Positions 7,801 through 64,000 of a DNA stretch of 64,000 nucleotides are shown in pieces. The stretch is from Marchantia polymorpha subsp. ruderalis. Its lineage: Eukaryota; Streptophyta; Marchantiopsida; Marchantiales; Marchantiaceae. Location: assembly GCA_037833965.1 (NCBI GenBank), contig AP031355.1:15339501-15403500 (forward strand), written 5' to 3'. Numbering within the stretch: position 1 is the stretch's first letter; each line of letters opens with the position of its first letter. Position numbers and translations under genes: made by a program. The notes under the pieces were generated by a model. That model made no database searches, was not told the origin of the DNA, and saw only the letters and a list, made by a program, of their open reading frames with translations.

Positions 7801-7869
7801 TGTGGTACCCCACTTTTGGTAATTTTGAGGAAATTAAAACATTTTTGGAAAACTGTACCACGGCAGCAG

Positions 7870-7877
7870 TATAAATA
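7870..7877 (+). promoter_or_regulatory. Possible TATA box for the LTR-borne frame
   Basis: TATAAATA lies 70 bp inside the left end of copy 2 and about 1.1 kb before the reading frame at 9012. Other copies have TGTAAATA or TTTAAATA at this place, so the box is only fully canonical here. If real, it would drive a transcript of the LTR-borne gene, separate from the genomic RNA promoter further downstream. Confidence 0.4.
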
Positions 7878-10800: not shown

Positions 10801-12143
10801 ACAGCCCTCGCGCAGGACCGATTGAGGGAGCAGGACCTGAAGGGGGAGCGGATTGACTGTCCGCGGGACGAAATTTCGGTGCGCGATGCGCAATCAAACC
10901 CCGCGCAGACACCCTCCGCTCGATCGCCTTCGGCGGCGGACGTCGGCGGCAGAGAGGATACGGTCGAAGACAGACAAGCGGGCGACGGGGATATAGCACG
11001 GCCACATTCGCCCACCGCCTTGGACATTTTGGCGAAGAGCAGCGAGGCTGCAGCGGTGCCTTCGCAGGCAGCACCCATAGACGACGTGCAGCCCCACTTG
11101 GGTCAGTCGCCAACGCAATCAATGGCGACTGAAATCCTTAACTCGGATGATGACGACGGAGGTTCCACAGAAGCAATGTCGGGAGCCAGGGATACCGAGG
11201 AGGAGGAGGAGGAAATTGTTGGAGCGCCGGCGGCGGCGCTCTCTGAGCAGGTGATACCGTTGCTGAAGTACTTGGATCGCAAATTTGATAAATACGCTGA
11301 TCCACTTCAGCCGGGATCTTACATCGAATTAGTGCGCAGACGGACTCGCACTAAAGTCCACACTAGCAAGCTACTAGCTCGGGTGGACCGGGAACTTAAG
11401 GATCTGCGAGAGAAGCATGAATGCTTGTGGGGTCAGTATAACCTCAATTAGAAATTCTACAAGTACTCCGAAAAGGTGAGGGATGGGAAACTGGAAGAGC
11501 TCACCAAGGAGCAGGTGAAGGTCACGGAAGCACTGATTTCTGAGCAGACCCAGAATCGGATTTTGTCAGAGGAGCTCGTGCGACAGACGCGGTTGTTAGA
11601 GCAGTGTCAGCTCGCACGACAGGCGGATGAGGATTTAATCCGCAGGCTACAGTCAGAGTGTGGGGAATTGAGAGCGCAGCGTGCGGAGGCCGAATCGTAG
11701 TTGGTGGTAATTGAAGATGATCGCAGGCGAGAGGCAGATCGCACGAAGGAGGAGATGGCGAGGCGTGTCGCCCACTGTCTCAAGGGCTACGCCCACTGGG
11801 AAGTGGCGGCGCAGGAGAAACTCACACTGCGTGAGTTAGAGCTTCGTGCAGCCGGGTTGTTGACAGGCGACAGCAGGAGTCGGCGGAAGGTGGCGAAGAA
11901 GCTAGACGCTTTTCTGTCAAAGGCGCGGGATACCATGTCCACCCTCGAGGTGGAGGTGTCCGCGGCGTTGCAGCGGTTAGGACTGCGTAGTCGAGCGGAA
12001 GACTGGCAGGGTAGGGAGTTAGTGCGCGGCAGTCCATCGCGCAGGAGACGTAGCACAGGTTCTGCGGAGTGTAGTGTAGCGTGGTTCCGTGCCGGCGCAT
12101 AGTGTAGTGTAGTGCAGTGTAGTGCTAGTTAGGACTTAGAAGG

Positions 12144-12172
12144 TATAAAGTAGTTCAAGGCGTTTTGCCTTG
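12144..12172 (+). promoter_or_regulatory. Second TATA box and adjoining dyad in the LTR
   Basis: TATAAAG starts at 12144 and is followed 5 bp later by CAAGGC-GTTTT-GCCTTG (12156-12172), a 6-bp inverted repeat with a 5-base loop. The arrangement is present in all copies that keep this part. In copies E, B and F the stem is CCAGGC/GCCTGG, so one base pair has changed on both sides. It sits after the LTR-borne frame and about 950 bp before the LTR end, where the promoter of the genomic RNA (U3/R boundary) is expected. Confidence 0.6.
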
Positions 12173-12900
12173 GGTTCTTTCCCAATTTCGGAAGTGCAGA
12201 TCAGGAACTCATTTTCTCTGCGTGTTTGTGTCCTTAGTTCTGTCACCACGCAAGGTTCGCTACCACTTGGCGTTCCGCATTTTGTAGCTGAAGACCTTCG
12301 GCCGAATGTTCAGAGCTAGTACATTGGTTAGAGACTTGAGTAGTTCGGATCTACACCTGCAGGTGATTGCCGATGCTCAGAGCCAATGACTAGTTAGATA
12401 CTTGAATAGTTTCGCCCCTACACCTTCGAGTGTTTGTTCCTGATTGTACTCCTTTGGAATTTTTCCCCTTAATGCCAAAGTGAAGTTTTGTTACTTCGTG
12501 TAAGCCTTGGTTGTAAATTCAGGTTACGCTGCAGCAAGTGCCTTCAGGGTAACCCCTGTAGTATTTCTGGGAATGACAAGTGCATGAGAATTCAAACTCT
12601 TCAATAGACTGTTGTTGTGTTACTGGAATGTTTCTCAGTGAGTTCTTCAGTGCGGACCTGTGTTCTCTACGCGTTTTGTGAGTTGAGAGTGTTGTTCACC
12701 GCGTATGAGTGACTTCGATCCGAAGTAGGCAGTCCAAACCGGGTTTCCTACGCTAGCAGCAAGCTAGTGGAAGTGTTGTAAAAGCCGGAGTTGGAAGTCA
12801 CTACCCGCAGCTTCGCTGAGTGTACTCTTGAGAGGCCTTCCCCCTGAAATCTTGAGTAGAGGTCCTAACGGGTCTCTGGGTTGTGTTTCTGTAGTTTCAG

Positions 12901-12931
<31 letters not shown>

Positions 12932-13125
12932 GCTGCACTGTGCGACCTCCGAGTGCGCTCCGAGTGGACACTTGCAGTATTTCTGGGAGTGACAGTCGCC
13001 TGAGAATTCAAACTCCTCAATAGTCTGTTAAACGTGACACTTTGTACCCTGTGTGTTCCTCTGTCCCTGTGGGTTCGACCTTTCTACCACTATATTGCAG
13101 TTTTAGCCTTTAGTGGGTTATTACA

Positions 13126-25600: not shown

Positions 25601-26033
25601 GATCTTGTTAACAGCATGCCCCCATCGCCTGTCAAGGATGGCCATGCCCTTCAGGCTGGCGGTGATCTCGAAAGTCTTGGTGCTTCTCCGAGAACCGCTT
25701 GGCGAGGAGATGTAACTCTGGGCAGGAGACCAGACTGGCAAGGTAAGTTCACTCCTAATCCTAGTATCTCCGTCGGAGCTCTGATTGAGACTGATTCAAA
25801 TCCGCTTTGCAAAGCAAATCCGCATTCGAGCACGTGCTCACATGACAAGCTGATGGCGTTGTTCAGGAATGTTTGGCGAGTTTGCCGAGCTATACAGAGG
25901 AAAGAACGTCGGAGTCCTTGTATCCGGTGGATCGAAGATGCAAGAGGACGTCGCCGCCCGCTGTAAGCATCACAACAGCTTACAAGGCTCTGAAGTGGCG
26001 TTCCACTACCACTCCGTCAGCTTCGAGCTGTAA
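22667..26033 (+). CDS. FRO: Ferric-chelate reductase (FRO family), 8 exons
   Basis: This is a predicted membrane flavocytochrome of 739 residues that passes electrons from cytosolic NADPH through FAD and two hemes to chelated Fe(III) or Cu(II). Exons: 22667-22832, 22989-23085, 23233-23436, 23667-23901, 24075-24399, 24572-24842, 24988-25742 and 25867-26033. All introns are GT-AG, 124-230 bp, and the phases agree. Heme ligands are H204/H218 (HX13H) and H278/H291 (HX12H), the spacing known for FROs. The FAD motif HPFS is at 365-368, EGPYG lies near 422, and the NADPH motif GGIGVTP is at 442-448. Two extra membrane spans follow at about 540-600, as in plant FROs. The usual C-terminal CGP reads SGG at 704-706. 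The ATG at 22667 gives the expected N-terminal membrane span; the fourth donor (23902) is the least certain junction. Length matches the family (700-760). Localisation (plasma membrane or organelle) cannot be told. Confidence 0.88.
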
Positions 26034-35554: not shown

Positions 35555-36562
35555 TGTAATAACCCACTAAAGGCTAAAACTGCAATATAGTGGTAGAAAG
35601 GTCGAACCCACAGGGACAGAGGAACACACAGGGTACAAAGTGTCACGTTTAACAGACTATTGATGAGTTTGAATTCTCAGGCGACTGTCACTCCCAGAAA
35701 TACTGCAAGTGTCCACTCGGAGCGCACTCGGAGGTCGCACAGTGCAGCGTAACACACACACACACACACACCTGAAACTACAGAAACACAACCCAGAGAT
35801 CCGTTAGGACCTCTACTCAAGATTTCAGGGGGAAGGTCTCTCGAGAGTACACTCAGCGAAGCTGCGGGTAGAGACTCCCAACTCCGGCTTTTACAACACT
35901 TCCGCTAGCTTGCTGCTAGCGTAGAAAACCCGGTTTGGACTACCTACTTCGGATCGAAATCACTCCTACGCGGTGAACAACACTCTCAACTCACAAAACG
36001 CGCAGAGAACACAGGTCCGCACTGAAGGACTCACTGAGAAACATTCCAGTAACACAATAACAGTCTATTGAAGAGTTTGAATTCTCAGGCACTTGTCATT
36101 CCCAGAAATACTACAGGGGTTACCCTGAAGGCACCTGCTGCAGCGTAACCTGAATTTACAACCAAGGCTTACACGAAGTAGCAAAACTTCACTTTGGCAT
36201 TCAGGGGAAAAATTCCAAGGGAGTACAATCAGAAAGAAACACTCGAAGGTGTAGGGGCGAAACTGTTCAAGTATCTAACTAGTCACTGGCTCTAAGCATC
36301 GGCAGTCACCCGCAGGTGCAGATCCGAACTACTCAAGTCTCTAACCAATGAACTAGCTCTAAACATTCGGCCGAAGGCCTTCAGCTACAAAATGCGGAAC
36401 GCTAAGTTGTAACTCCTCGTGCGTGGTGACAGAACTCAAGGACACAAACACGCAAAGGAAATGGGTTCCTGATCTGCACTTCTGATGGGAAAGAACCCCA
36501 GGCAAAACGCCTGGAACTATTTTATACCTTCTAAGTCCTACCTAGCACTACACTGCACTACG

Positions 36563-39500
36563 CTACACGCCTGCACGGAACCACGCTACACTACACTCCG
36601 CGGAACCTGTACTACGTCTCCTCCGCGGCCGACTGCCGCGCACTAACTCCCTACCCTGCCAATCTTCCGCTCGACTGCGCAGTCCCAACCGCTGCAACGC
36701 CGCGGACACCTCCCCTTCGAGGGCGGACATGGTATCCTGTGCCTTCGACAGAAAGGCATCGAGCTTCTTTGCTACCTTCCGCCGACTCCTACTGTCGCCT
36801 GACAACAACCCGGCTGCGCGCAATTCAAACTCACGCAGTGTGAGTTTCTCCTGCGCCTTCACTTCCCAGTGGGCGTAGCCCTTGAGACAGTGGGCGACTC
36901 GCCTCGCCGTCTCCACCTTCGTGCGATCCGCCTCCTTCCTGCGATCCTCTTCAATTATCACTAATTGCGATTCGGCTTCAGCACGTTGCGCTCTCAATTC
37001 GCCACACTCTGACTGTAACCTGCGGATTAACTCTTCATCCGCCTGCCGTGCGAGCTGACATTGTTCCAACAACCGCGTCTGTCGCACGAGCTCCTCTGAC
37101 AAAATCCGATTCTGGGCCTGCTCAGAAATGAGTGCTTCCTTGACCTTCACCTGCTCCTTGGTGAGCTCGTCCAGTTTCTCATCCTTCATCTTCTCGGAGT
37201 GCTTGTAGAATTTCTGATTAAGCTTGTACTGACCCCACAAGCACGCATGCTTCTCCTTCAATTCCTTCAACTCCTGGTCCACTCTAGCTAATAGCTTGCT
37301 GGTGTGGACTTTAGTGCGAGTCCGCCTGCGCACTAACTCGATGTAAGATCCCGGCTGGAGTGGGTCGGCGTATTTATCGACCTTGCGATCCAAGTACCGC
37401 AGCAACGGAATCACCTGCTCAGAGAGCGCCGCCGCCGGCGCTCCAACAATTTCCTCCTCCTCCTCCTCGGTGTCTTCTGCTCCTGACATTTCTTCCGTGG
37501 AGCCTCCGTCGTCATCATCCGAGTGGAGAATTTCAGTCGCCATTGATTGCGTCGGCGACTGCCCCGAGTGGGGCTGCACGTCATCGACGTGTGCTGCCTG
37601 CGAAGGCACGGCTGCAGCCTCGCTGCTCGTCGCCAAAATGTCTAAGGCGGAAGGCGAATGTACCCGTGCGGCATCCCCGTCGCTCGCTTGTTGATTGTCT
37701 ACCGCATCCTCTCTGCCGCCGTCGTCCGCCGCCGAAGGCGATCGAGCGGAGGGTGACTGCGCGGGGTTTGATTGCGCATCGCGCATCGAGATTTCATCCC
37801 GCGGACAGTCACTCCGCTCCTCCGTCTGTTGCTGCTCCCTTGATCGGTCCGTGGGGGCTGTGCCCGGCCCGTGCGCAGGCGCATTTGCCGGCGCCTTGTC
37901 CGCCGCAGGCGTAGCGCCGCGGACATCTATCGCCGAAGGCGACATGGCCGGGGGCCGCACGCCCGATGTTCCTTGGCCTATAGGCCCTACCGCCGAAGGC
38001 GCATCTATCGGCGGACTTCCCGCCGATGGTGCGGCCTCCGCACGCTCTCTGCTCGTATCTCCTCGGCTCGAAGGCCCTGGCGCCGAAGGCGCAAATTGCG
38101 GCGCGTGGTGCGCCGGAGGGTCTGGCCCCGAGGGCCGGTGTCTCGTAGGCGGTTCTTCCGCCGGCTCCTTCCCCTTCCTACGTTGGAACGGGGGTGATTC
38201 TTGCCTGTGCACAGGCGGCACGTGTGGAGGCGTCCTGTGCACAGGCGACCTGTGCACAGGTGAGCGCCTGTGCACAGGCGGACTGCTCCTTCCCACGCGT
38301 AAGCGTAGATCCACGTCCACTTGTGTTCGCCGGTCCGCGGAGGCTCGTCCGTCCGCGGAGGCTCGTCTGTGCGCAAACGGAACATCTGTCCGCATCGCAC
38401 GTGGTAACTCCGGAGGCCCTTGGCCCGTAGGCGGCCTTTCTCCCGTCGAGGTTGCAGCGTGGCCCGTTGCTCCTGCGGTCGTCCGCGCTTCCTCCTGCCT
38501 CTCTGGCGACGCACTTCCGATCTCCGTCGCAATTGTCGCCGTGTCCGCACTGTCGGCTGGTAACACCAGTCTGCGTGCCTTCTGCTTCGGCCGGCTGTAT
38601 GGCTCGCACAGCGGCCGCAGTCGAATGGGAGCAGAGGGTTCTTGATGCTGCTCCTCTTCAGACTCTTCCCTCCATCGCCGCTTCCGCGGCACTCGTGCTG
38701 CAGGAGTGTGTCTCCCTTCGTCCCTCCGTCTTGATGGGGTAGAAGTCGGTGACTCCTCTGCATCAGTGTCGACCTCGTTCTCCCGCACATACTTCCCGGG
38801 ATGGTCGATGGACAATGGCGGAAAATGTTCAAGCTCCGCCGCTGTCAAACAATTCCGCTGTCGATAAAAATTGATGAGGAAAGGAGAAAGATGGTTTAGA
38901 GTTCCCCCCTTCTCCTCAAACGCGTGCTGTCGCATCACCCTGTGCAGGATGCTCGCCCAGTGAATTGGAGTTCCCTCGATGACGCACTCCACAAAAGAGA
39001 CCTGCCACAATGTGATGTAGCAGGCGCGGTGCGGCTGCAGTAACTGCATCAGCGCCGCGGACAAAGTCCGGCGAAATCGATCCTTGTAATCACGGGTCCT
39101 GTACCCATTCTTGGTAGACCTCCCGGTCTTGAACAGCTCCACAAATTGCGCCTCTTCTTGCTTGGTCACCTTGATGCTCTCACTGTCGAAAAGGAGATGC
39201 CCTGGCATGCCAGCACATCTTCCCAACGCCTGCGCCCAATCTTGGACTGTCCACCGGTCAACATGCGGACGCAATCCGCGCGAGGGTGGTCCCTGTGGCT
39301 CTAGCCACTCGCGCACCATATTCGCACAGATGTAATTCCATCCCCATAGCAAGAAATCGAGCTTTCTTGCTATTAAGCGCTCCTCGAAAGCGCGCAGCCC
39401 GTTCTGCGGTAGGCGAAGTGGCACCATCCGCAATCTGCTCGGTCTCGTCATTGCGTTCCTGGAGTTCGCTCGCCCGCTCATTCTACTTCCGCACCGCCCG

Positions 39501-39703
39501 GGTTTCTTTCTCTCTCGGCAAACTCTAATCGCCCTCAATTCCAAATCACGCGCACTCACTTCTCCCTCAATCAACAAGAAATCTCCTGTGCGACGACGTC
39601 GAGAATGTTCCGCAGCCAGCAGATGGATGCGCGCAGCGCGCACAAGAGATTGGAATCGCGAATTCAAGAATGGGACGTTCTCCGCCGCCCGGTCGAAGGT
39701 CAT
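36563..39703 (-). CDS. LTR-borne protein, copy E (1046 residues, whole)
   Basis: The protein function is unknown. Residues 1-90 are Arg-rich. Residues 100-320 form the best conserved block, with WTVQDWAQALGRCAG, a KNGYRTRDYKDRF segment and HWASILHRVMRQ. The last resembles the shape of domains seen in extra reading frames of plant Athila/Tat-type Gypsy elements, but that is only an impression. Residues 330-740 are low complexity, rich in Pro, Ser, Ala, Arg and His, and coded largely by palindromic units. An acidic run (EEEEEE) lies near 746, and about 820-1010 is a predicted coiled coil. There are no RT, protease, integrase or zinc-knuckle motifs. It lies wholly inside the LTR and upstream of the putative genomic promoter. 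Confidence 0.7.
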   Translation of the reverse strand: MTFDRAAENVPFLNSRFQSLVRAARIHLLAAEHSRRRRTGDFLLIEGEVSARDLELRAIRVCRERKKPGRCGSRMSGRANSRNAMTRPSRLRMVPLRLPQNGLRAFEERLIARKLDFLLWGWNYICANMVREWLEPQGPPSRGLRPHVDRWTVQDWAQALGRCAGMPGHLLFDSESIKVTKQEEAQFVELFKTGRSTKNGYRTRDYKDRFRRTLSAALMQLLQPHRACYITLWQVSFVECVIEGTPIHWASILHRVMRQHAFEEKGGTLNHLSPFLINFYRQRNCLTAAELEHFPPLSIDHPGKYVRENEVDTDAEESPTSTPSRRRDEGRHTPAARVPRKRRWREESEEEQHQEPSAPIRLRPLCEPYSRPKQKARRLVLPADSADTATIATEIGSASPERQEEARTTAGATGHAATSTGERPPTGQGPPELPRAMRTDVPFAHRRASADGRASADRRTQVDVDLRLRVGRSSPPVHRRSPVHRSPVHRTPPHVPPVHRQESPPFQRRKGKEPAEEPPTRHRPSGPDPPAHHAPQFAPSAPGPSSRGDTSRERAEAAPSAGSPPIDAPSAVGPIGQGTSGVRPPAMSPSAIDVRGATPAADKAPANAPAHGPGTAPTDRSREQQQTEERSDCPRDEISMRDAQSNPAQSPSARSPSAADDGGREDAVDNQQASDGDAARVHSPSALDILATSSEAAAVPSQAAHVDDVQPHSGQSPTQSMATEILHSDDDDGGSTEEMSGAEDTEEEEEEIVGAPAAALSEQVIPLLRYLDRKVDKYADPLQPGSYIELVRRRTRTKVHTSKLLARVDQELKELKEKHACLWGQYKLNQKFYKHSEKMKDEKLDELTKEQVKVKEALISEQAQNRILSEELVRQTRLLEQCQLARQADEELIRRLQSECGELRAQRAEAESQLVIIEEDRRKEADRTKVETARRVAHCLKGYAHWEVKAQEKLTLREFELRAAGLLSGDSRSRRKVAKKLDAFLSKAQDTMSALEGEVSAALQRLGLRSRAEDWQGRELVRGSRPRRRRSTGSAECSVAWFRAGV
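38205..38285. repeat. Palindromes CCTGTGCACAGG inside the coding frame
   Basis: Four copies of CCTGTGCACAGG, within the longer CGCCTGTGCACAGGCG form in places, fall within about 80 bp of the LTR-borne frame. They encode PVHR units on the coding strand. The same palindrome also occurs in the non-coding leader of this unit (40045-40440), so it spreads or persists regardless of coding status. Confidence 0.85.
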
Positions 39704-40947
39704 GGTCGGCTCTTGCTCGTGAAGAACGTCTCACTTGATGGCCGCGCCGGCTGTACGCTGGAACGGTCTTCGCTCTCACGCGCGGCTTCACGCTCCGCCG
39801 TCGTCGATTAAACTCTCACGCTCGAATTGGCGGATTTGAACTCCGCGAGCGTATTACCCTGCGGACATGGGGGCGTAGCGCCAAAGGCGAGTTTTCCGCC
39901 TTGCGCGGTACACTTGTTCGTACCGCCCCTCGGCCAATCCCCCTCTGCCTTGACGCGTGTGTCCGCATGTCGGACAAAAGTTCAACTCCTGCCTGTGCGC
40001 AGGTAGGAGCCTCCGCGGATTCTCCGCCGGCACGGAACTTCATCCTCCTGTGCACAGGCGTTCGCCTGTGCGCAGGCGAATTCCGTGCGCTACGTCGCGC
40101 TGGCGCGGAAGGCGTTGACAGTGGTCAGCCGTCTCCGTCCAGTCTGTCCGTTCCTTGTCTCTTCGTCGGCGCTTCCGCCGCCGCAACTCCGTCCGTCCAA
40201 GAGCGCATCCACCCTTCCCGTCCGCATGGTCCGTACCGATTTGATTACTCTGGCGGCTCTTCCGACGTACGCGGCGCCGCGCTGGCGCGGAAGGCGCCGT
40301 ACACTTTCTACCTCACAAGGCGCATTTCTAGGGCCCAAGGCGGATTTTCCGCCGACGCCGAAGCGCCTGTGCACAGGCGAGCGCCTGTGCGTAGGCGGAC
40401 TTCGCGCCTCCCCTAACCCTACTTCGCCTGTGCACAGGCGAACGCCTTCGTCCGCGCATAGGACAAAACTTGATTCCCCCTTCCGTGTAGGCGGAATTCG
40501 CGCCGGTGGCGAACTCTTTCCGCCGTAGGCGACCGCCTCCGTTTCTTCCAATAGCGATAACTCCCTAAGTCCTCATCCGTTCCAAGCGTTCTTGGGCTCG
40601 TTGGAATCAGTGCGTCGAGCTCTTTCCAACGGGATCCTAACTGGATCAAGGCGCCCGAGGGTCAACCTAATTATGGAGGGTTTCCCTACAGCCGCGGACG
40701 CAACCTCCGAAGGCGGGTTTTGCGCCTTGCACCGTAGAGATCCTAACTGCAGAGCTCGCAGGGAGGGTGGTGCCTGTCCTTACTGCTGCACCCCAAATCC
40801 CAGATTCTACAAGATCCCTCGAGAATCCCCGCGATCTTCCGGATTCACTCTGTTTTGATGTACCGAAGGCTATTTACAATGCTGCTAGGGTACAGTTTTC
40901 CAAAAATGTTTTAATTTCCTCAAAATTGCCAAAAGTGGGGTACCACA

Positions 40948-44509: not shown

Positions 44510-47500
44510 TGTAATAACCCACTAAAGGCTAAAACTGCAATATAGTGGTAGAAAGGTCGAACCCACAGGGACAGAGGAACACACAGGGTACAAAGTGTCA
44601 CGTTTAACAGACTATTGATGAGTTTGAATTCTCAGGCGACTGTCACTCCCAGAAATACTGCAAGTGTCCACTCGGAGCGCACTCGGAGGTCGCACAGTGC
44701 AGCGTACACACACACACACACACCTGAAACTACAGAAACACAACCCAGAGATCCGTTAGGACCTCTACTCAAGATTTCAGGGGGGAAGTCTCTCAAGAGT
44801 ACACTCAGCGAAGCTGCGGGTAGTGACTTCCAACTCCGGCTTTTACAACGCTTCCACTAGCTTGCTGCTAGCGTAGGAAACCCGGTTTGGACTGCCTACT
44901 TCGGATCAAAGTCACTCATACGCGGTGAACAACACTCTCAACTCACAAAACGCGCAGAGAACACAGGTCCGCACTGAAGGACTCACTGTGAAACATTCCA
45001 GTAACACAACAACAGTCTATTGAAGAGTTTGAATTCTCAGGCACTTGTCATTCCCAGAAATACTACAGGGGTTACCCTCAAGGCACCTGCTGCAGCGTAA
45101 CCTGAATTTACAACCAAGGCTTACACGAAGTAGCAAAACTTCACTTTGGCATTCAGGGGAAAAATCCCAAGGAGTACAATCAGAAAGAAACACTCGAAGG
45201 TGTAGGGGCGAAACTGTTCAAGTATCTAACTAGTCACTGGCTCTGAGCATCGGCAGTCACCCGCAGGTGCAGATCCGAACTACTCAAGTCTCTAACCAAT
45301 GTACTAGCTCTGAACATTCGGCCGTAGGCCTTCAGCTACAAAATGCGGAACGCTAAGTTGTAACTCCTCGTGCGTGGTGACAGAACTCAAGGACACAAAC
45401 ACGCAAAGGAAATGGGTTCCTGATCTGCACTTCTGATGGGAAAGAACCCCAGGCAAAACGCCTGGAACTATTTTATACCTTCTAAATCCTAACTAACACT
45501 ACACTGCACTACGCTACACGCCTGCACGGAACCACGCTACACTACACTCCGCGGAACCTGTACTACGTCTCCTGCGCGGCCGACTGCCGCGCACTAACTC
45601 TCTACCCTGCCACTCTTCCGCTCGACTGCGCAGTCCCAACCGCTGCAACGCCGCGGACACCTCCCCCTCGAGGGCGGACATGGTATCCTGTGCCTTCGAC
45701 AGAAAGGCCTCGAGCTTCTTCGCTACCTTCCGCCGACTCCTACTGTCGCCTGACAACAACCCGGCTGCGCGCAATTCAAACTCACGCAGTGTGAGTTTCT
45801 CCTGCGCCTTCACTTCCCAGTGGGCGTAGCCCTTGAGACAGTGGGCGACTCGCCTCGCCGTCTCCACCTTCGTGCGATCCGCCTCCTTCCTGCGATCCTC
45901 TTCAATCGTCACTAATTGCGATTCGGCTTCAGCACGTTGCGCTCTCAATTCGCCACACTCTGACTGCAAACTGCGGATTAATTCTTCATCCGCCTGCCGT
46001 GCGAGCTGACATTGTTCCAACAACCGCGTCTGTCGCACGAGCTCCTCTGACAAAATCCGATTCTGGGCCTGCTCAGAGTTGAGTGCTTCCTTGACCTTCA
46101 CCTGCTCCTTGGTGAGCTCGCCCAGTTTCTCATCCTTCATCTTCTCGGAGTGCTTGTAGAACTTCTGATTAAGCTTGTACTGTCCCCACAAGCACTCATG
46201 CTTCTCCTTCAAGTCCCTCAACTCCTGGTCCACTCTAGCTAATAGCTTGCTGGTGTGGACTTTAGTGCGAGTCCTCCTGCGCACTAACTCGATGTAAGAT
46301 CCCGGCTGGAGTGGGTCGGCGTATTTATCGACCTTGCGATCCAAGTACCGCAGCAACGGAATCACCTGCTCAGAGAGCGCCGCCGCCGGCGCTCCAACAA
46401 TTTCCTCCTCCTCCTCCTCGGTGTCTTCTGCTCCTGAAATTTCTTCCGTGGAGCCCCCGTCGTCATCATCCGAGTGGAGAATTTCAGTCGCCATTGATTG
46501 CGTTGGTGACTGCCCCGAGTGGGGCTGCACGTCCTCGACGTGTGCTGCCTGCGAAGGCACGGCTGCGGCCTCGCTGCTCGTCGCCAAAATGTCTAAGGCG
46601 GAAGGCGAATGTATCCGAGCGGCATCCCCGTCGCTCGCTGGTTGATTGCCCACCTCATTCTCTCTGTCGCCGTCGTCCGTCGCCGAAGGCGATCGAGCGG
46701 AGGGTGGCTGCGCGGGGTTGGATTGCGCATCGCGCATCGAGATGTCGTCCCGCGGACAGTCACTCCGCTCCTCCGTCTGCTGCTCCCTCGATCGGTCCGT
46801 GGGGGCTGTGCCCGGCCCGTGCGCAGGCGCATTTGCCGGCGCCTTGTCCGTCGCAGGCGTAGCGCCGCGGACATCTATCGCCGAAGGCGACATGGCCGGG
46901 GGCCGCACGCTCGATGTTCCTTGGCCTATAGGCCCTACCGCCGAAGGCGGATCTATCGGCGTACTTCCCGCCGATGGTGCGGCCTCCGCACGCTCTCTGC
47001 TCGTGTCCCCTCGGCTCGAAGGCCCTGGCGCCGAAGGCGCGAATTGCGGCGCGTGGTGCGCCGGAGGGTCTGGCCCCGAGGGCCGGTGTCTCGTAGGCGG
47101 TTCTTCCGCCGGCTCCTTCCCCTTCCTACGTTGGAACGGGGGTGATTCTTGCCTGTGCACAGGCGGCACGTGCGGAGGTGTTCTGTGCACGGGTGACCTG
47201 TGCACAGGCGACCTGTGCACAGGTGAGCGCCTGTGCACAGGCGGACTGCTCCTTCCCACGCGTAAGCGTAGATCCACGTCCACTTGTGTTCGCCGGTCCG
47301 CGGAGGCTCGTCCGTCCGCGGAGGTTCGCCTGTGCGCAAACGGAACCTCTGTCCGCATCGCACGTGGTAACTCCGGAGGCCCTTGGCCCGTAGGCGGCCT
47401 CTCTCCCGACGAGGTTGCAGCGTGGCCCGTCGCTCCTGCGGTCGTCCGCGCTTCCTCTCGCCTCTCTGGCGACGCACTTCCTATCTCCGTCGCAATCGTC

Positions 47501-49849
47501 GCCGTGTCTGCACTTTCAGCTGGCAACACCAGTCTGCGTGCCTTTTGCTTCGGCCGGCTGTATGGCTCGCACAGCGGCCGCGGTCGAATGGGAGCAGAGA
47601 GTTCTTGATGCTGCTCCTCTTCGGACTCTTCCCTCCATCGCCGCTTCCGCGGCACTCGCGCTGCAGGGGTGTGTCTCCCTTCGTCTCTCCGTCTTGATGG
47701 GGTAGAAGTCGGGGACTCCTCTGCGTCAGTATCGACCTCGTTCTCCCGCACATACTTCCCGGGATGGTCGATGGACAATGGCGGAAAATGTTCAAGCTCC
47801 GCCGCTGTCAAACAATTCCGCTGTCGATAAAAATTGATGAGGAAAGGAGAAAGATGGTTTAGAGTTCCCCCCTTCTCCTCAAACGCGTGCTGTCGCATCA
47901 CCCTGTGCAGGATGCTCGCCCAGTGAATTGGGGTTCCCTCGATGACGCACTCCACAAAAGAGACCTGCCACAATGTGATGTAGCAGGCGCGGTGCGGCTG
48001 CAGTAACTGCATCAGCGCCGCGGACAAAGTCCGGCGAAATCGATCCTTGTAATCCCGGGTCCTGTACCCATTCTTGGTTGACCTCCCGGTCTTGAACAGC
48101 TCCACAAATTGCGCCTCTTCTTGCTTGGTCACCTTGATGCTCTCACTGTCGAAAAGGAGATGCCCTGGCATGCCAGCACATCTTCCCAACGCCTGCGCCC
48201 AATCTTGGACTGTCCACCGGTCAACATGCGGACGCAATCCGCGCGAGGGTGGTCCCTGTGGCTCTAGCCACTCGCGCACCATATTCGCGCAGATGTAATT
48301 CCATCCCCATAGCAAGAAATCGAGCTTTCTTGCTATTAAGCGCTCCTCGAAAGCGCGCAGCCCGTTCTGCGGCAGGCGAAGTGGCACCATCCGCAATCTG
48401 CTCGGTCTCGTCATTGCGTTCCTGGGGTTCGCTCGCCCGCTCATTCTACTTCCGCACTGTCCGCGTTTCTTTCTCTCTCGGCAAACTCTAATCGCTCTCA
48501 ATTCCAAATCACGCGCACTCACTTCTCCCTCAATCAACAAGAAATCTCCTGTGCGACGACGACGAGAATGGTCCGCAGCCAGCAGATGGATGCGCGCAGC
48601 GCGCACAAGAGATTGGAATCGCGAATTCAAGAATGGGACGCTCTCCGCCGCCCGGTCGAAGGTCATGGTCGGCTCTTGGTCGTGAAGAACGTCTCACTTG
48701 ATGGCCGCGCCGGCTGTACGCTGGAACGGTCTTCGCTCTCACGCGCGGCTTCACGCTCCGCCGTCGTCGATTAAACTCTCACGCTCGAATTGGCGGATTT
48801 GAACTCCGCGAGCGTGTCACCCTCCGGACATGGGGGCGTAGCGCCGAAGGCGAGTTTTCCGCCTTGCGCGGTACACTTGTTCGTACCGCCCCTCGGCCAA
48901 TCTCCTTCTGCCTTGACGCGTGTGTCCGCATGTCGGACAAAAATTCAACTCCTGCCTGTGCGCAGGCGGAAGCCTCGGTGGATCCTCCGCCGGTGCGGAA
49001 CTCCATCCTCCTGTGCACAGGCGTTCGCCTGTGCGCAGGCGAATTTCGTCCGCGGCGCTGCGCTGGCGCGGAAGGCGTTGACCGTGGTCAGCCGTCTCCG
49101 TCCAGTCTGTCCGTTCCTTGTCTCTCCGTTGGCGCTTCCGCCGCCGCAACTCCGTCCGTCCAAGAGCGCATCCACCCGTGCCGTTTGCACGGTCCGTACC
49201 TGTTGGATTACTCTGGCGGCTCTTCCGACGTACGCGGCGCTGCGCTGGCGCGGAAGGCGCCGTACACTTTCTACCTCACAAGGCGCATTTCTAGGGCCCA
49301 AGGCGGATTTTCCGCCGACGCTGAAGTGCCTGTGCACAGGCGAACGCCTTCGTCCGCGCATAGGACAAAACTTGATTCCGCCTTCCGCGTAGGCGGAATT
49401 CGCGCCGGTGGCGAACTCCTTCCGCCGTAGGCGACCGCCTCCGTTTCTTCCAGTAGCGATAACTCCCTAAGTCCTCGTCCGTTCCAAGCGTTCTTGGGCT
49501 CGTTAGAATCAGCGCGTCGAGCTCTTTCCAACGGGACCCTAACTTGGTCAAGGCGCCCGAGGGTTTACCTAATTACGGGGGGTTTCCCTACAGCCGCGGA
49601 CGCAACCTCCGAAGGCGGGTTTTGCGCCTTGCGCTGTAGAGATCCTAACTGCGGAGCTCGCAGGGAGGGTGGTGCCTGTCCTTACTGCGGCACCCCAAAT
49701 CCCAGATTCTACAAGATCCCTCGAGAATCCCCGCGATCTTCCGGATTCACTCTGTTTTGATGTACCGAAGGCTATTTACAATGCTGCCAGGGTACAGTTT
49801 TCCAAAAATGTTTTAATTTCCTCAAAATTGCCAAAAGTGGGGTACCACA
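44510..49849 (-). mobile_element. Giant LTR unit B, solo LTR, looks whole
   Basis: This is a complete minus-strand unit of 5340 bp with both canonical ends, flanked by the perfect 5-bp duplication CGGAT (44505-44509 and 49850-49854). It sits inside the reading frame of another giant LTR copy. The reading frame is whole, so this is among the youngest insertions in the window. It has no internal terminal repeat, consistent with a solo LTR. Confidence 0.87.
45514..48666 (-). CDS. LTR-borne protein, copy B (1050 residues, whole)
   Basis: This is the same protein as copy E, with scattered substitutions and one extra PVHRS unit in the palindrome-coded stretch. The N-terminal block and C-terminal coiled coil are the most alike between copies, and the low-complexity middle changes most in repeat number. 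Two whole frames in copies that have begun to diverge suggest that the frame was intact in the source element. Function remains unknown; a nucleic-acid or particle-associated role is only a guess from the basic head and coiled coil. Confidence 0.7.
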   Translation of the reverse strand: MTFDRAAESVPFLNSRFQSLVRAARIHLLAADHSRRRRTGDFLLIEGEVSARDLELRAIRVCRERKKRGQCGSRMSGRANPRNAMTRPSRLRMVPLRLPQNGLRAFEERLIARKLDFLLWGWNYICANMVREWLEPQGPPSRGLRPHVDRWTVQDWAQALGRCAGMPGHLLFDSESIKVTKQEEAQFVELFKTGRSTKNGYRTRDYKDRFRRTLSAALMQLLQPHRACYITLWQVSFVECVIEGTPIHWASILHRVMRQHAFEEKGGTLNHLSPFLINFYRQRNCLTAAELEHFPPLSIDHPGKYVRENEVDTDAEESPTSTPSRRRDEGRHTPAARVPRKRRWREESEEEQHQELSAPIRPRPLCEPYSRPKQKARRLVLPAESADTATIATEIGSASPERREEARTTAGATGHAATSSGERPPTGQGPPELPRAMRTEVPFAHRRTSADGRASADRRTQVDVDLRLRVGRSSPPVHRRSPVHRSPVHRSPVHRTPPHVPPVHRQESPPFQRRKGKEPAEEPPTRHRPSGPDPPAHHAPQFAPSAPGPSSRGDTSRERAEAAPSAGSTPIDPPSAVGPIGQGTSSVRPPAMSPSAIDVRGATPATDKAPANAPAHGPGTAPTDRSREQQTEERSDCPRDDISMRDAQSNPAQPPSARSPSATDDGDRENEVGNQPASDGDAARIHSPSALDILATSSEAAAVPSQAAHVEDVQPHSGQSPTQSMATEILHSDDDDGGSTEEISGAEDTEEEEEEIVGAPAAALSEQVIPLLRYLDRKVDKYADPLQPGSYIELVRRRTRTKVHTSKLLARVDQELRDLKEKHECLWGQYKLNQKFYKHSEKMKDEKLGELTKEQVKVKEALNSEQAQNRILSEELVRQTRLLEQCQLARQADEELIRSLQSECGELRAQRAEAESQLVTIEEDRRKEADRTKVETARRVAHCLKGYAHWEVKAQEKLTLREFELRAAGLLSGDSRSRRKVAKKLEAFLSKAQDTMSALEGEVSAALQRLGLRSRAEEWQGRELVRGSRPRRRRSTGSAECSVAWFRAGV

Positions 49850-58826: not shown

Positions 58827-59481
58827 TGTGGTAACACGCTTTTTGTTTTTTTTTGCAGAATTTAAACAATTTTAGAAAACAAGTACCGAAGCAGTGTCTG
58901 TAGTTAGAAAAGGGTACGTTAAATAGAGTGGATTGAGGAGATCGTCACGAGGTCACGAAGAATCGCGAAGTCGGATGTACCAGCGCCAAATGTCTTCGGC
59001 GCCTTCGGCAAAAGCTCCTTTTCTAAGGTGTCTCTACTCACGCGCTGCTAGCGTTTAAGGAAGCTACGCTGCCGGCGCAGACACCTCCGGAGGAGATTTT
59101 GCTAAAGACGTCAGAAGAACGGCACGGACCTCTGAAGGCTTCCGACCATGAGTGCGCCTTCGGCGATGCGCCGCTAGCGCGGAAAAGGAAACCTTCATAA
59201 AAATCGGAATACACGGTAGTTCCAATTGATTGAAGTTGCATTGGAAAGAGCTCGGGACGCTCGTCCTAACGAGCCCAAGAGCGTTGGAGATGGATCAGGG
59301 ACGAAGAAGTTATGAGCATTGGAAAACTCATAGCCGGACATGCGCAGTTCGCGCTAGGGTTCACAGTCGGAAAGGACTCCCGTACGCCTTCGGCGATGCG
59401 CCTGAATCGCGCGCTCATGGGAGGAAATCAACTCAGAGTCGGAAGCGCCTTTGGCGGCTGCGCAACGGAAGAAAAGCGCCG
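58827..59481 (+). mobile_element. Giant LTR part I (left-end fragment, copy 1 subfamily)
   Basis: This fragment starts TGTGGTAACACGC and resembles the left end of copy 1 (GTAAC type) more than the GTACCCC type of the other copies. It has 655 bp of leader with palindromic units and ends where unit F begins. Its remainder may lie beyond the window. Confidence 0.7.
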
Positions 59482-59881
59482 TGTGGTACCCCACTTTTGG
59501 CAATTTTGAGGAAATTAAAACATTTTTGGAAAACTGTACCCTGGCAGCATTGTAAATAGCCTTCGGTACATCAAAACGGAGTGAATCCGGAAGATCGCGG
59601 GGATTCTCGAGGGATCTTGTAGAATCTAGGATTTGGGGTGCGGCAGTAAGGACAGGCACCACCCTCCCTGCGAGCTCTGCAGTTAGGACCCCTACGACGC
59701 AAGGCGCAAAACCCGCCTTCGGAGGTTGCGTCCGCGGCGAGAGGAAATCCTCCATAATTAGGTCGACCCTCGGGCGCCTTGACCAAGTTAGGGTCTCGTT
59801 GGAAAGAGCTCGACGCACCGATTCCAACGAGTCCAAGAACGCTTGGAACGGATAAAGGCGCTCGGGCGGTGCGGAAGTAGA

Positions 59882-62767
59882 ATGAGCGGGCGAGCGAACC
59901 CCAGGAACGCAATGACGAGACCGGGCAGATTGCGGATGGTCCCACTTCGCCTACCACAGAACGGGCTGCGCGCTTTCGAGGAGCGCTTAATAGCAAGAAA
60001 GCTCGATTTCTTGCTATGGGGATGGAACTACATCTGTGCGAATATGGTGCGCGAGTGGCTAGAGCCACAGGGACCATCCTCGCGCGGATTGCGTCCGCAT
60101 GTCGATCGGTGGACAGTCCAAGATTGGGCGCAGGCGTTGGGAAGATGTGCTGGCATGCCAGGGCATCTCCTTTTCGACAGTGAGAGCATCAAGGTGACCA
60201 AGCAGGAAGAGGCGCAATTTGTGGAGCTATTCAAGACCGGGAGGTCGACCAAGAATGGGTACAGGACCCGTGATTACAAGGATCGATTTCGCCGGACTTT
60301 GTCCGCGGCGCTGATGCAATTGCTGCAGCCACATCGCGCCTGCTACATCACATTGTGGCAGGTCTCTTTTGTGGAGTGCGTCATCGAGGGAACTCCAATT
60401 CACTGGGCAAGCATCCTGCACAGGGTGATGCGACAGCACGCTTTTGAGGAGAAGGGGGGAACTCTAAACCATCTTTCTCCTTTCCTCATCAATTTTTATC
60501 GACAGCGGAATTGTTTGACAGCGGCGGAGCTTGAGCATTTTCCGCCATTGTCCGTCGACCATCCCGGGAAGTATGTGCGGGAGAATGAGGTCGACACTGA
60601 TGCAGAGGAGTCACCGACTTCTACCCCATCAAGGCGGAGGGACGAAGGGAGAAACACTCCTGCAGCACGAGTGCCGCGGAAGCGGCGATGGAGAGAAGAG
60701 TCCGAAGAGGAGCAGCATCAAGAACCCTCTGCTCCCATTCGACCGCGGCCGCTGTACGAGTCATACAGCCGGCCGAAGCAGAAGGCACGCAGACTGGTGT
60801 TACCAGCCGACAGTGCGGACACGGCGACGATTGCGACGGAGAAAGGAAGTGCGTCGCCAGAGAAGCATGAGGAAGCGCGGACGACCGCAGGAGCAACGGG
60901 CCACGCCGCAACCTCGACGGGAGAGAGGCCGCCTACGGGCCAAGGGCCTCCGGAGTTACCACGTGCGTCGCGGACAGATGTTCCGTTTGCGCACAGACGA
61001 GACTCCGCGGACGGACGAGCCTCCGCGGACAGGCGATCACAAGTGGACGTGGATCTACGCTTACGCGTGGGAAGGAGCAGTCCGCCTGTGCACAGGACAC
61101 CTCCACACGTGCCGCCTGTGCACAGGCAAGAATCACCCCCGTTCCAACGTAGGAAGGGGAAGGAGCCGGCGGAAGAACCGCCGACGAGACACCGGCCCTC
61201 GGGGCCAGACCCTCCGGCGCACCACGCGCCGCAATTTGCGCCTTCGGCGCCAGGGCCTTCGAGCCGAGGAGATACGAGCAGGGAGCGTGCGGAGGCCGCA
61301 CCATCGGCGGGTAGTCCGCCGATAGATGCGCCTTCGGCGGTAGGGCCTATAGGCCAAGGGACATCGGGCGAGCGGCCCCCGGCCATGTCGCCTTTGGCGA
61401 TGGATGTCCGCGGCGCTACGCCTGCGGCGGACAAGGCGCCGGCATTTGCGCCTGCGCACAGGCCGAGCACAAACCCCACGGACCGATCTAGGGAGCAGCA
61501 ACAGACGGTGGAGCGGAGTGACTGTCCGCGGGATGAAATTTCGATGCGCGATGCGCAATCAAACCCCGCGCAGCCACCCTCCGCTCGATCGCCTTCGGCG
61601 GCGGGCGTCTGCGGCAGAGAGGACACGGTAGACGACCAACAAGCGAGCGGCGGGGATGCCGCACGGGCACATTCGCCTACCGCCTTAGACATTTTGGCGA
61701 AGAGCAGCGAGGCTGCAGCCGTGCCTTCGCAGGCAGCACACGTCGACGACGTGCAGCCCCACTCGGGGCAGTCGCCGACACAATCAATGGCGACTGAAAT
61801 TCTCCACTCGGATGATGACGACGGAGGCTCCACTGAAGAAATGTCAGGAGCAGAGGACACCGAGGAGGAGGAGGAGGAAATTGTTGGAGCGCCGGCGGCG
61901 GCGCTCTCTGAGCAGGTGATTCCGTTGCTGAGGTACTTAGATCGCAAGGTCGATAAATACGCCGACCCACTTCAGCCGGGATCTTACATCGAGTTAGTGC
62001 GCAGGCGGACTCGCACTAAAGTCCACACCAGCAAGCTGTTAGCTAGAGTGGACCAGGAGTTGAGGGAATTGAAGGAGAAGCATGCATGCTTGTGGGGTCA
62101 GTATAAACTTAATCAGAAATTCTACAAGTACTCCGAGAAGGTGAAGGATGAGAAACTGGACGAGCTCACCAAGGAGCAGGTGAAGTTCAAGGAAGCACTC
62201 ATTTCTGAGCAGGCCCAGAATCGGATTTTGTCAGAGGAGCTCGTGCGACAGACGCGGTTGTTGGAACAATGTCAGCTCGCACGGCAGGCGGATGAGGAGT
62301 TAATCCGCAGGTTACAGTCAGAGTGTGGCGAATTGAGAGCGCAACGTGCTGAGGCCGAATCGCAATTAGTGATAATTGAAGAGGATCGCAGGAAGGAGGC
62401 GGATCGCACGAAGGTGGAGACGGTGAGGCGTGTCGCCCACTGTCTCAAGGGCTACGCCCACTGGGAAGTGAAGGCGCAGGAGAAACTCACACTGCGTGAG
62501 TTTGAATTGCGCGCAGCCGGGTTGTTGTCAGGCGACAGTAGGAGTCGACGGAAGGTAGCAAAGAAGCTCGATGCTTTTCTGTCGAAGGCACAGGATACCA
62601 TGTCCGCCCTCGAAGTGGAGGTGTCCGCGGCGTTGCAGCGGTTGGGACTGCGCAGTCGAACGGAAGATTGGCAGGGTAGGGAGTTAGTGCGCGGCAATCC
62701 GCCGCGCAGGAGACGTAGTACAGGTTCCGCGGAGTGTAGTGTAGCGTGGTTCCGTGCAGGCGTGTAG
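59882..62767 (+). CDS. LTR-borne protein, copy F (961 residues, shorter head)
   Basis: This is the same protein as copies E and B, but it begins at an ATG near the start of the conserved block (MSGRANPRN), so it lacks most of the Arg-rich head. The conserved block, low-complexity middle, acidic run and coiled coil are all present. Because this copy sits in a 5' LTR next to a primer-binding site, it is the best evidence that the frame belongs to the LTR of an otherwise ordinary retrotransposon. Confidence 0.7.
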   Translation: MSGRANPRNAMTRPGRLRMVPLRLPQNGLRAFEERLIARKLDFLLWGWNYICANMVREWLEPQGPSSRGLRPHVDRWTVQDWAQALGRCAGMPGHLLFDSESIKVTKQEEAQFVELFKTGRSTKNGYRTRDYKDRFRRTLSAALMQLLQPHRACYITLWQVSFVECVIEGTPIHWASILHRVMRQHAFEEKGGTLNHLSPFLINFYRQRNCLTAAELEHFPPLSVDHPGKYVRENEVDTDAEESPTSTPSRRRDEGRNTPAARVPRKRRWREESEEEQHQEPSAPIRPRPLYESYSRPKQKARRLVLPADSADTATIATEKGSASPEKHEEARTTAGATGHAATSTGERPPTGQGPPELPRASRTDVPFAHRRDSADGRASADRRSQVDVDLRLRVGRSSPPVHRTPPHVPPVHRQESPPFQRRKGKEPAEEPPTRHRPSGPDPPAHHAPQFAPSAPGPSSRGDTSRERAEAAPSAGSPPIDAPSAVGPIGQGTSGERPPAMSPLAMDVRGATPAADKAPAFAPAHRPSTNPTDRSREQQQTVERSDCPRDEISMRDAQSNPAQPPSARSPSAAGVCGREDTVDDQQASGGDAARAHSPTALDILAKSSEAAAVPSQAAHVDDVQPHSGQSPTQSMATEILHSDDDDGGSTEEMSGAEDTEEEEEEIVGAPAAALSEQVIPLLRYLDRKVDKYADPLQPGSYIELVRRRTRTKVHTSKLLARVDQELRELKEKHACLWGQYKLNQKFYKYSEKVKDEKLDELTKEQVKFKEALISEQAQNRILSEELVRQTRLLEQCQLARQADEELIRRLQSECGELRAQRAEAESQLVIIEEDRRKEADRTKVETVRRVAHCLKGYAHWEVKAQEKLTLREFELRAAGLLSGDSRSRRKVAKKLDAFLSKAQDTMSALEVEVSAALQRLGLRSRTEDWQGRELVRGNPPRRRRSTGSAECSVAWFRAGV

Positions 62768-62803
62768 CGTAGTGCAGTGTAGTGCTAGGTAGAACTTAGA
62801 AGG

Positions 62804-62832
62804 TATAAAATAGTTCCAGGCGTTTTGCCTGG
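62804..62832 (+). promoter_or_regulatory. TATA box and CCAGGC/GCCTGG dyad in unit F
   Basis: TATAAAAT at 62804-62811 is followed by CCAGGC (62816-62821), a GTTTT loop and GCCTGG (62827-62832). The expected start of the genomic RNA falls at or just after the dyad, leaving an R-U5 region of about 940 bp to the LTR end. It differs from copies 1, 2 and H by a paired change in the stem. Confidence 0.6.
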
Positions 62833-63798
62833 GGTTCTTTCCCATCAGAAGTGCAGATCAGGAACCCATTTCCTTTGCGTGTTTGTGTCCTTGAGTTCTG
62901 TCACCACGCACGAGGAGTTACAACTTAGCGTTCCGCATTTTGTAGCTGAAGGCCTTCGGCTGAATGTTCAGAGCTAGTCCATTGGTTAGAGACTTGAGTA
63001 GTTCGGATCTGCACCTGCGGGTGACTGCCGATGCTCAGAGCCAGTGACTAGTTAGATACTTGAACAGTTTCGCCCCTACACCTTCGAGTGTTTCTTTCTG
63101 ATTGTACTCCCTTGGGATTTTTCCCCTGAATGCCAAAGTGAAGTTTTGCTACTTCGTGTAAGCCTTGGTTGTAAATTCAGGTTACGCTGCAGCAGGTGCC
63201 TTGAGGGTAACCCCTGTAGTATTTCTGGGAATGACAAGTGCCTGAGAATTCAAACTCTTCAATAGACTGTTGTTGTGTTACTGGAATGTTTCACAGTGAG
63301 TCCTTCAGTGCGGACCTGTGTTCTCTGCGCGTTTTGTGAGTTGAGAGTGTTGTTCACCGCGTATGAGTGACTTCGATCCGAAGTAGGCAGTCCAAACCGG
63401 GTTTCCTACGCTAGCAGCAAGCTAGTGGAAGCGTTGTAAAAGCCGGAGTTGGAAGTCACTACCCGCAGCTTCGCTGAGTGTACTCTTGAGAGACTTCCCC
63501 CCTGAAATCTTGAGTAGAGGTCCTAACGGATCTCTGGGTAGTGTTTCTGTAGTTTCAGGTGTGTGTGTGTGTGTGTATGTACGCTGCACTGTGCGACCTC
63601 CGAGTGCGCTCCGAGTGGACACTTGCAGTATTTCTGGGAGTGACAGTCGCCTGAGAATTCAAACTCATCAATAGTCTGTTAAACGTGACACTTTGTACCC
63701 TGTGTGTTCCTCTGTCCCTGTGGGTTCGACCTTTCTACCACTATATTGCAGTTTTAGCCTTTAGTGGGTTATTACATAAGAAGCCGACAACTTCTTTT

Positions 63799-63816
63799 TG
63801 GCGCCGCTGCCGGGGA
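63799..63816 (+). other. Primer-binding site for tRNA-Asp
   Basis: TGGCGCCGCTGCCGGGGA begins 22 bases after the end of LTR unit F. It is the complement of a plant tRNA-Asp 3' end including CCA, apart from one position compared with the commonest form (GTTGCC). tRNA-Asp-type sites of this form are well known in Athila/Tat-like Gypsy elements of plants. Confidence 0.85.
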
Positions 63817-63862
63817 CAGTTGCGTCAACACCGGGGTTTTTACGAGCAGCCATGCTCGGTGA

Positions 63863-64000
63863 ATGTCGACTGGAGCTAGCGGGAGCAACCTAAGTGCTAG
63901 AGCTGTTCGCAGGTTCCGACGAGATTCAGAGAAGGCCGTGGAAGAGACACGGCGTCAAAACAAGAAAACACCAAAAAGAGTACCTAAGCCTAGTTCGGCC
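63863..64000 (+). CDS. Start of a gag-like frame (runs off the window)
   Basis: An ATG at 63863, 46 bases after the primer-binding site, opens a frame that stays open for 46 codons to the end of the window. It starts MSTGASGSNLSARAVRRF and is rich in Arg, Lys and Ser, as Gag N-termini often are. Its position fits gag; the sequence alone does not prove it. Confidence 0.55.
   Translation, partial: MSTGASGSNLSARAVRRFRRDSEKAVEETRRQNKKTPKRVPKPSSA

What the first reader, a model, noticed from the sequence alone, without database searches (positions are those of the whole stretch)
59482..64000. A retrotransposon LTR that carries its own gene of about 1000 codons
Unit F runs from a canonical TG end to a CA end, contains an open frame of 961 codons, and is followed 22 bases later by an 18-nt tRNA-Asp primer-binding site and a gag-like start. 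The frame is therefore inside the LTR, not between LTRs. Extra frames in plant Gypsy elements usually lie between LTRs; a large protein gene in the LTR is rare (mouse mammary tumour virus sag is the familiar animal case). Every LTR copy gives a potential source of the protein, even after solo-LTR formation.
Basis: partly seen in the sequence, partly recalled or inferred. Interest (0 to 1): 0.85.

Follow-up and report, generated by a model that had tools for sequence, protein, structure and literature searches.

The report
Retrotransposon LTR carrying a protein gene
In a liverwort (Marchantia polymorpha), the end repeats of an abundant jumping element each contain a gene for a protein of about 1040 amino acids that natural selection has kept working, an arrangement known from a few animal retroviruses but not one I found described in plants.

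Summary
Unit F (59482-63776) is the 5' LTR of a Ty3/gypsy element: TG...CA, PBS 22 bases on, gag to integrase, then a 5375-bp 3' LTR beyond the window (7 substitutions in 4295 shared sites), with CGCCG on both outer flanks. F lacks about 1060 bp; its 961-codon frame is a shortened form of a 1035-1050-codon frame intact in 11 of 18 full-length LTRs examined. Eleven of 17 full-length units are solo LTRs with exact 5-bp duplications; 6 of these 11 keep the frame. It is a selected gene: pN/pS 0.28 overall, 0.08 in columns 95-335, constraint like gag's, none in shifted frames. A conserved TATA box follows the stop codon, so the gene sits in U3, like nef and sag. The genome holds 3186 LTR ends, 1251 LTR-PBS junctions and 2590 copies of a gene marker. 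Host: Marchantia polymorpha subsp. ruderalis. Function is unproven; I favour a nuclear accessory protein made from the element's 3' RNA. New variant of a known kind.

The parts
59477..59481 (+). left target-site duplication CGCCG (right copy directly after the 3' LTR, C6:15419767-15419771)
59482..63776 (+). unit F: 5' LTR of a Ty3/gypsy element, internally deleted by about 1060 bp relative to its 3' LTR
59882..62767 (+). LTR gene in F: 961 codons from the first ATG, 5'-truncated form of a 1035-1050-codon frame
59942..60664 (+). most constrained part of the LTR gene (about alignment columns 95-335 of the full frame; coordinates approximate), pN/pS 0.077
62804..62810 (+). TATA box beginning 37 bases downstream of the end of the stop codon; conserved in families 1 and 2; places the gene in U3
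63799..63816 (+). primer-binding site, 22 bases after the LTR end
63863..64000 (+). start of gag (944-codon gag-protease frame continuing beyond the window, L009:5364-8198)
44510..49849 (-). solo LTR of the same family with 5-bp target duplication (ATCCG as read on the - strand); carries an intact 1050-codon frame (45514-48666)
35555..40947 (-). full-length LTR of the same family, intact 1046-codon frame (36563-39703); no target duplication found
7801..13125 (+). older solo LTR (88% identical) with 5-bp target duplication, frame broken
2313..7411 (+). diverged family-2 solo LTR (66-80% identical in blocks) with target duplication ATCAT and a decayed relative of the gene

Best explanation
An abundant Ty3/gypsy retrotransposon of Marchantia polymorpha carries an accessory gene of 1035-1050 codons wholly inside the U3 part of its ~5.4-kb LTR. 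SHOWN: both LTRs of one element and many solo LTRs carry it; it is kept by purifying selection about as strong as that on gag; a TATA box conserved between two families lies directly downstream of it. INFERRED: transcription starts after that TATA box in the 5' LTR, so the gene is read only from the 3' LTR, as the last gene of the genomic RNA after pol, and is probably translated from a spliced or otherwise subgenomic RNA. Reverse transcription then copies it with U3 into the 5' LTR. A likely origin is an extra sense ORF downstream of pol that came to lie inside the LTR when plus-strand priming moved to a purine tract upstream of it. INFERRED, weaker: the product is a basic, non-membrane, nuclear protein (conserved N-terminal domain, Pro/Ala/Ser/Arg-rich variable middle, charged C-terminal region) that acts in trans on the element's expression, silencing or integration.
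For: LTR identity: element flanked by CGCCG, solo LTR flanked by GTATT; 11 of 17 full-length units with exact 5-bp duplications, 10 independent; Pfam gag, zinc knuckle, RT, RNase H and integrase in the body. Gene: intact in 11 of 18 units; pN/pS 0.28 over 12 sequences, 0.077 in alignment columns 95-335; observed/expected N:S against base- and CpG-matched reassignment 0.27-0.49 for the whole frame in 6 pairs; the same measure is 0.25-0.37 for gag in 5 pairs, 0.37-0.47 for the frame in 4 pairs, and 1.1-2.1 for its +1 and +2 frames. Position: GTATAAA after the stop in 18 of 18 family-1 units, and TATAAAG at the same place in 11 of 12 family-2 sequences (the twelfth, L042, gave no match). No strongly hydrophobic stretch; basic clusters RKRR and RRRR; pI 9.1.
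Against: No transcript or protein data were available, so expression, TSS and splicing are inferred. Two database gene models seem, by eye, to join gag or integrase to this frame (P0082, P0071), but no GT donor stands at the place implied by P0071 in this element. No known domain was found in the protein. The fold prediction failed twice (mean pLDDT 37.2 and 39.6). A simple heptad test of the C-terminal region did not support a coiled coil (489 of 1000 shuffles as high). Constraint is uneven: columns 420-480 give 1.08 and the last 38 columns 1.50; in the middle third 3 of 6 pairs, and in the N-terminal third 1 of 6, were not clearly below expectation (more than 100, or 21, 115 and 169, of 500 simulations as low in the middle; 173 in the N-terminal third). 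The sampled LTRs came from best-match lists and the window and are biased to young copies.
Confidence: 0.72

Rival explanations
1. The gene has its own promoter in the first 1.2 kb of the LTR, so that every LTR, solo ones included, can express it independently of the element.
For: Six of 11 units with target duplications keep an intact frame; 1244 bp of LTR precede the ATG.
Against: No TATA[AT]A occurs in positions 1-1244 of the 3' LTR; the box after the frame is conserved between families. Intact frames in young solo LTRs are expected without any expression.
Confidence: 0.2
2. The gene is an env-like gene, as proposed for sense extra ORFs of some plant elements, that happens to lie in the LTR.
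For: Sense orientation, directly 3' of pol on the RNA; sense extra ORFs after pol are called env-like in the review PMC7264820.
Against: No membrane-spanning stretch: the highest 19-residue hydropathy mean is 1.14; the protein is basic and rich in charged residues.
Confidence: 0.05
3. The frame is a passenger: a host or foreign gene trapped in the LTR and amplified with it, without use to the element.
For: No known domain; in the profile search 85 of 113 hits are named, each of those M. polymorpha subsp. ruderalis, and 28 are unnamed.
Against: Constraint between copies comparable to gag, and a recognisable relative in a second LTR family (38-81% identical piece by piece); a passenger would drift.
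Confidence: 0.08
4. The low N:S comes from selection for host use of a few copies, or is an artefact of GC-rich sequence or CpG decay.
For: The LTR is 57% GC.
Against: The control matches base and CpG context, and shifted frames of the same DNA show ratios above 1.
Confidence: 0.04

Closest known systems
[quoted passage not shown] SIRE in PMC6317226, passages read)
   Same: Extra sense gene located 3' of pol on the RNA; function unknown.
   Different: Those lie between pol and the 3' LTR; here the gene is wholly inside the LTR (U3), is copied into both LTRs and survives in solo LTRs. No membrane segment.
MMTV sag and primate lentivirus nef (ORFs in the 5' third of the LTR; passages of PMC2664473 read, which also mention ORFs in some HML LTRs)
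   Same: Sense gene in U3, upstream of the LTR's own TATA box (for sag and nef this detail is recalled), read from the 3' LTR.
   Different: Plant Ty3/gypsy element; about 1040 codons (sag and nef are a few hundred codons, recalled); no sequence relation detected (Pfam).
Grande gene23 / RIRE2 / Retand antisense aORFs (PMC7264820)
   Same: Extra gene at the 3' end of a plant Ty3/gypsy element; gene23 product is nuclear.
   Different: Antisense and internal there; sense and in the LTR here.
Retrosat2 ORF0 (PMC3485330, abstract and passages read)
   Same: LTR retrotransposon with unusually long LTRs (>3.2 kb) and an extra ORF.
   Different: ORF0 lies upstream of the gag-pol ORF, not in the LTR.
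[not shown]
   Same: Ty3/gypsy elements reported from the same genus.
   Different: Whether the present element belongs to that clade was not tested; the passages read mention no LTR gene.

Membership tests
Ty3/gypsy LTR retrotransposon | two near-identical TG...CA LTRs within one target-site duplication | tested here: met
   F and C6:15414392-15419766, 7 substitutions in 4295 sites, CGCCG on both outer flanks
Ty3/gypsy LTR retrotransposon | PBS after the 5' LTR and purine tract before the 3' LTR | tested here: met
   PBS at 63799; GAGGAGGGGAGCA directly before the 3' LTR; pairing with a particular tRNA not tested
Ty3/gypsy LTR retrotransposon | gag - protease - RT - RNase H - integrase order | tested here: met
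   Pfam hits in that order in L009 and L010; the two protease hits are below Pfam's cut-offs, and the last 234-codon integrase piece has no hit
Plant sense additional ORF (aORF-3S / env-like) | sense ORF 3' of pol | tested here: met
   integrase frame ends before the purine tract; the gene follows in the 3' LTR in sense
Plant sense additional ORF (aORF-3S / env-like) | lies in the internal region between pol and 3' LTR | tested here: not met
   frame is inside units that occur as solo LTRs with target duplications
Plant sense additional ORF (aORF-3S / env-like) | transmembrane segment for env-like function | tested here: not met
   maximum 19-residue Kyte-Doolittle mean 1.14
U3 gene of the nef/sag type (works like) | sense ORF in U3, upstream of the LTR TATA box | tested here: met
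   frame 1245-4352, TATA at 4389 of the 5375-bp LTR; box conserved; the transcription start itself was not tested
U3 gene of the nef/sag type (member of) | sequence homology to nef or sag | tested here: not met
   no such Pfam family listed at E<=1 for the whole proteins or E<=10 for the 7 N-terminal domain sequences
Transposase_32 / other plant retrotransposon extra-ORF domains | match to PF20167, PF10536, PF04195 or PF03078 | tested here: inconclusive
   no hmmscan hit; the PF20167 genome search had no positive control; a resemblance to PF20167 seen by eye is recall only
Tat/Athila (OTA) clade | RT/INT phylogeny within OTA | not tested
   no reference RT set was built

The most novel reading that the evidence does not exclude
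A plant Ty3/gypsy lineage evolved, independently of retroviruses, a required trans-acting gene housed entirely in U3. Every integration plants two copies and every solo LTR leaves one, so thousands of LTRs form a dispersed reservoir of an element-encoded nuclear regulator (for example a counter-silencing or integration factor) that unrelated copies and the host genome can use.
Probability: 0.3. Interest if true: 0.82.

Novelty: new variant of a known kind. Interest (0 to 1): 0.66.

Why it matters
LTRs are usually treated as non-coding regulatory repeats and are masked or classified without looking for genes. Here the LTR carries a gene of some 1040 codons under gag-like constraint in thousands of places in a model plant genome, and 88 database entries matching this protein at E<=0.001 (4, 84) are named as ordinary hypothetical proteins of Marchantia polymorpha. 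It gives a plant counterpart to nef/sag, a testable case for how an accessory gene can enter U3, and a possible cause of over-counted genes and of LTR misclassification in liverworts.

Tried and rejected
Chance open frame: rejected. Unit not an LTR: rejected by target duplications and PBS/PPT. Other coding frames in the LTR: the antisense frames at LTR 719-90 and 3277-2303 and a small sense frame at 902-1195 gave observed/expected N:S of 0.40-1.42 in 4 pairs each, many on few differences, so no firm sign of coding. Env-like protein: disfavoured (no membrane segment). Coiled coil in the C-terminal region: suspected by eye, not supported by the heptad test. Splicing from integrase into the gene: suggested by database model P0071, but no GT donor at the matching place here. 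Structure of the N-terminal domain: two predictions, mean pLDDT 37.2 and 39.6, too poor for a fold search, so none was run. Relation to PF20167: suspected from memory, not found by any tool. Genomic setting of the more diverged relatives (P0002-P0004, P0056, P0079, P0082): not obtained, so whether their gene lies in an LTR is open.
Full report
WHERE IT IS. The window lies on contig C6 (31,446,154 bases) of a 241-Mb, 9-contig genome. A host gene in the window (27046-28782) matches MpPP2C_A2 of Marchantia polymorpha subsp. ruderalis at 96% identity over 58% of the frame, and that protein's longest source contig has exactly the length of C6. I take the host as that species.

THE ELEMENT. Unit F (59482-63776) begins TG and ends CA. 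The PBS starts 22 bases later (63799) and gag at 63863. Reading on beyond the window: a 944-codon gag-protease frame, an RT-RNase H frame, integrase, a purine tract (GAGGAGGGGAGCA) and then a 5375-bp 3' LTR at C6:15414392-15419766. CGCCG precedes F and follows the 3' LTR. The two LTRs differ by 5 transitions and 2 transversions in 4295 shared sites, plus 18 gap columns (K2P 0.0016), so the insertion is young. A solo LTR of the same family, flanked by GTATT on both sides, is inserted in the integrase gene.

F IS A DELETED COPY. F lacks about positions 374-1435 of the 3' LTR, including the first ~64 codons of the gene. Both LTRs are copied from one RNA, so the deletion most likely arose after insertion (inference). 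The full gene is at 1245-4352 of the 3' LTR (1035 codons); in the other units where it is intact it has 1035-1050 codons.

THE UNIT IS AN LTR. Of 17 units that align to the 3' LTR from end to end in one piece (from the window and loci L009-L032; mostly best-match loci, so biased to young copies), 11 have exact 5-bp target duplications and are solo LTRs. Two of these (L020, L025) share the same flanks and count as one event, so 10 are independent. Three have the PBS to the right (L013, L016, L028), two the purine tract to the left (L015, L016), and two have none of these marks (L018, whose right flank still begins like the leader, and window 35555-40947). Frames of more than 1000 codons are in 11 of 18 units (the 17 and the 3' LTR), among them 6 of the 11 solo LTRs. 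An older, diverged LTR at 2313-7411 has target duplication ATCAT and decayed remains of the gene.

ABUNDANCE. With up to 3 mismatches the genome holds 3186 copies of the LTR's first 28 bases, 1251 copies of a 38-base LTR-PBS junction and 2590 copies of a 42-base marker in the gene; the reversed-pattern control gave 0 each time. If all LTR ends were full-length the LTRs alone would be 17 Mb (7%), an upper bound, not a measurement.

IT IS A SELECTED GENE. Over 12 sequences (11 intact, and F) pooled pN/pS is 0.28: 0.17 in alignment columns 1-335, 0.45 in the middle, 0.23 in the C-terminal part. Columns 95-335 give 0.077, columns 1-95 0.43; four of the 60-column blocks lie between 0.85 and 1.50. 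Against reassignment of the observed changes to sites of the same base and CpG context, N:S over the whole frame was 0.27-0.49 of expectation in 6 pairs, and 0, 0, 0, 0, 4 and 0 of 500 simulations were as low; in sub-regions of the closer pairs, with few changes, the difference is often not clear. The same test gave 0.25-0.37 for gag in 5 pairs (0, 0, 0, 4 and 13 of 300 as low), 0.37-0.47 for the gene in 4 pairs (0, 0, 2 and 0 of 300), and 1.1-2.1 for its two other sense frames. Family 2 encodes a relative, 38-81% identical piece by piece and mostly with stops or frame breaks.

PLACE IN THE LTR. A TATA box begins 37 bases after the end of the stop codon. All 18 family-1 units have it (17 TATAAAA, one TATAAAG), and TATAAAG stands at the same place in 11 of 12 family-2 sequences (L042 gave no match), whose surroundings are 80-85% identical (one second match at 72%). 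No TATA[AT]A occurs in the 1244 bases before the gene in the 3' LTR. By inference transcription starts after the gene, U3 is about 4.4 kb and R-U5 about 0.95 kb. The gene is then read from the 3' LTR, as the last gene of the genomic RNA, as sag and nef are (LTR ORFs described in passages of PMC2664473; the mode of reading is recalled).

THE PROTEIN. No Pfam family. A profile of the N-terminal domain found 113 proteins at E<=10 (112 at E<=0.001): 85 named, each a hypothetical protein of M. polymorpha subsp. ruderalis, and 28 unnamed; the whole protein found 4, likewise M. polymorpha. Only proteins sharing exact words and of limited length are candidates, so distant relatives elsewhere are not excluded. 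It is basic (pI 9.1), has basic clusters and no membrane stretch. Structure prediction failed, and a heptad test did not support a coiled coil. So function rests on weak ground; I favour a nuclear accessory role by exclusion and by analogy with Grande gene23 (PMC7264820).

LITERATURE. Searches for ORFs or genes in LTRs or extra ORFs, and 13, 42 and 63 for Marchantia elements, gave listings; parts 1 and 2 of PMC7264820 and passages of PMC6317226, PMC3485330, PMC10508981, PMC9985172, PMC2664473, PMC1560396, PMC4016481 and PMC8775202 were read. None of what I read describes a gene inside a plant LTR. The library holds open-licence papers only, so this is no proof of absence.

VERDICT. The finding is real and stronger than stated: the gene is longer, very numerous and selected. 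The claim that each LTR is a source of protein is not shown. New variant of a known kind: a sense extra gene of a plant retrotransposon, placed in U3.

Noticed in passing
C2:31350998-31384550, C7:8463236-8507902, C4:14473263-14495595; L013, L016, L015: Matches spaced 11.16-11.18 kb apart suggest head-to-tail arrays of the element (LTR plus body). In the C4 case the outer flanks of the first and third LTR share CAGAC, as if LTR-body-LTR-body-LTR lay in one target duplication; the bodies were not read through.
   Followed up: partly
3' LTR (L010:6393 to L011:1767) and the window: Short palindromes are strongly over-represented in the LTR: GCCTTCGGC 6 times against 0.08 in 50 shuffles, CTGTGCACAG 5 against 0; they occur both in the non-coding part and inside the gene, where CCTGTGCACAGG can read PVHR.
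   Followed up: partly
window 44510-49849 compared with the 3' LTR: Mosaic divergence: 4-7% in U3 and the gene but 0.9% in the end of U3, R and U5, as if R-U5 had been exchanged between subfamilies by template switching.
   Followed up: no
window 53278-56013 (-): Another Ty3/gypsy pol whose integrase frame runs directly into an LTR start of this type at about 53296.
   Followed up: no
P0071, P0082 (database proteins): Gene models of M. polymorpha that by eye fuse integrase or gag to the LTR gene; retroelement sequence annotated as host genes.
   Followed up: partly
window 23584-25966 and 27046-28785: Host genes between repeats: frames that look like a respiratory burst oxidase (by eye, recalled) and a PP2C phosphatase identified as MpPP2C_A2.
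   Followed up: partly
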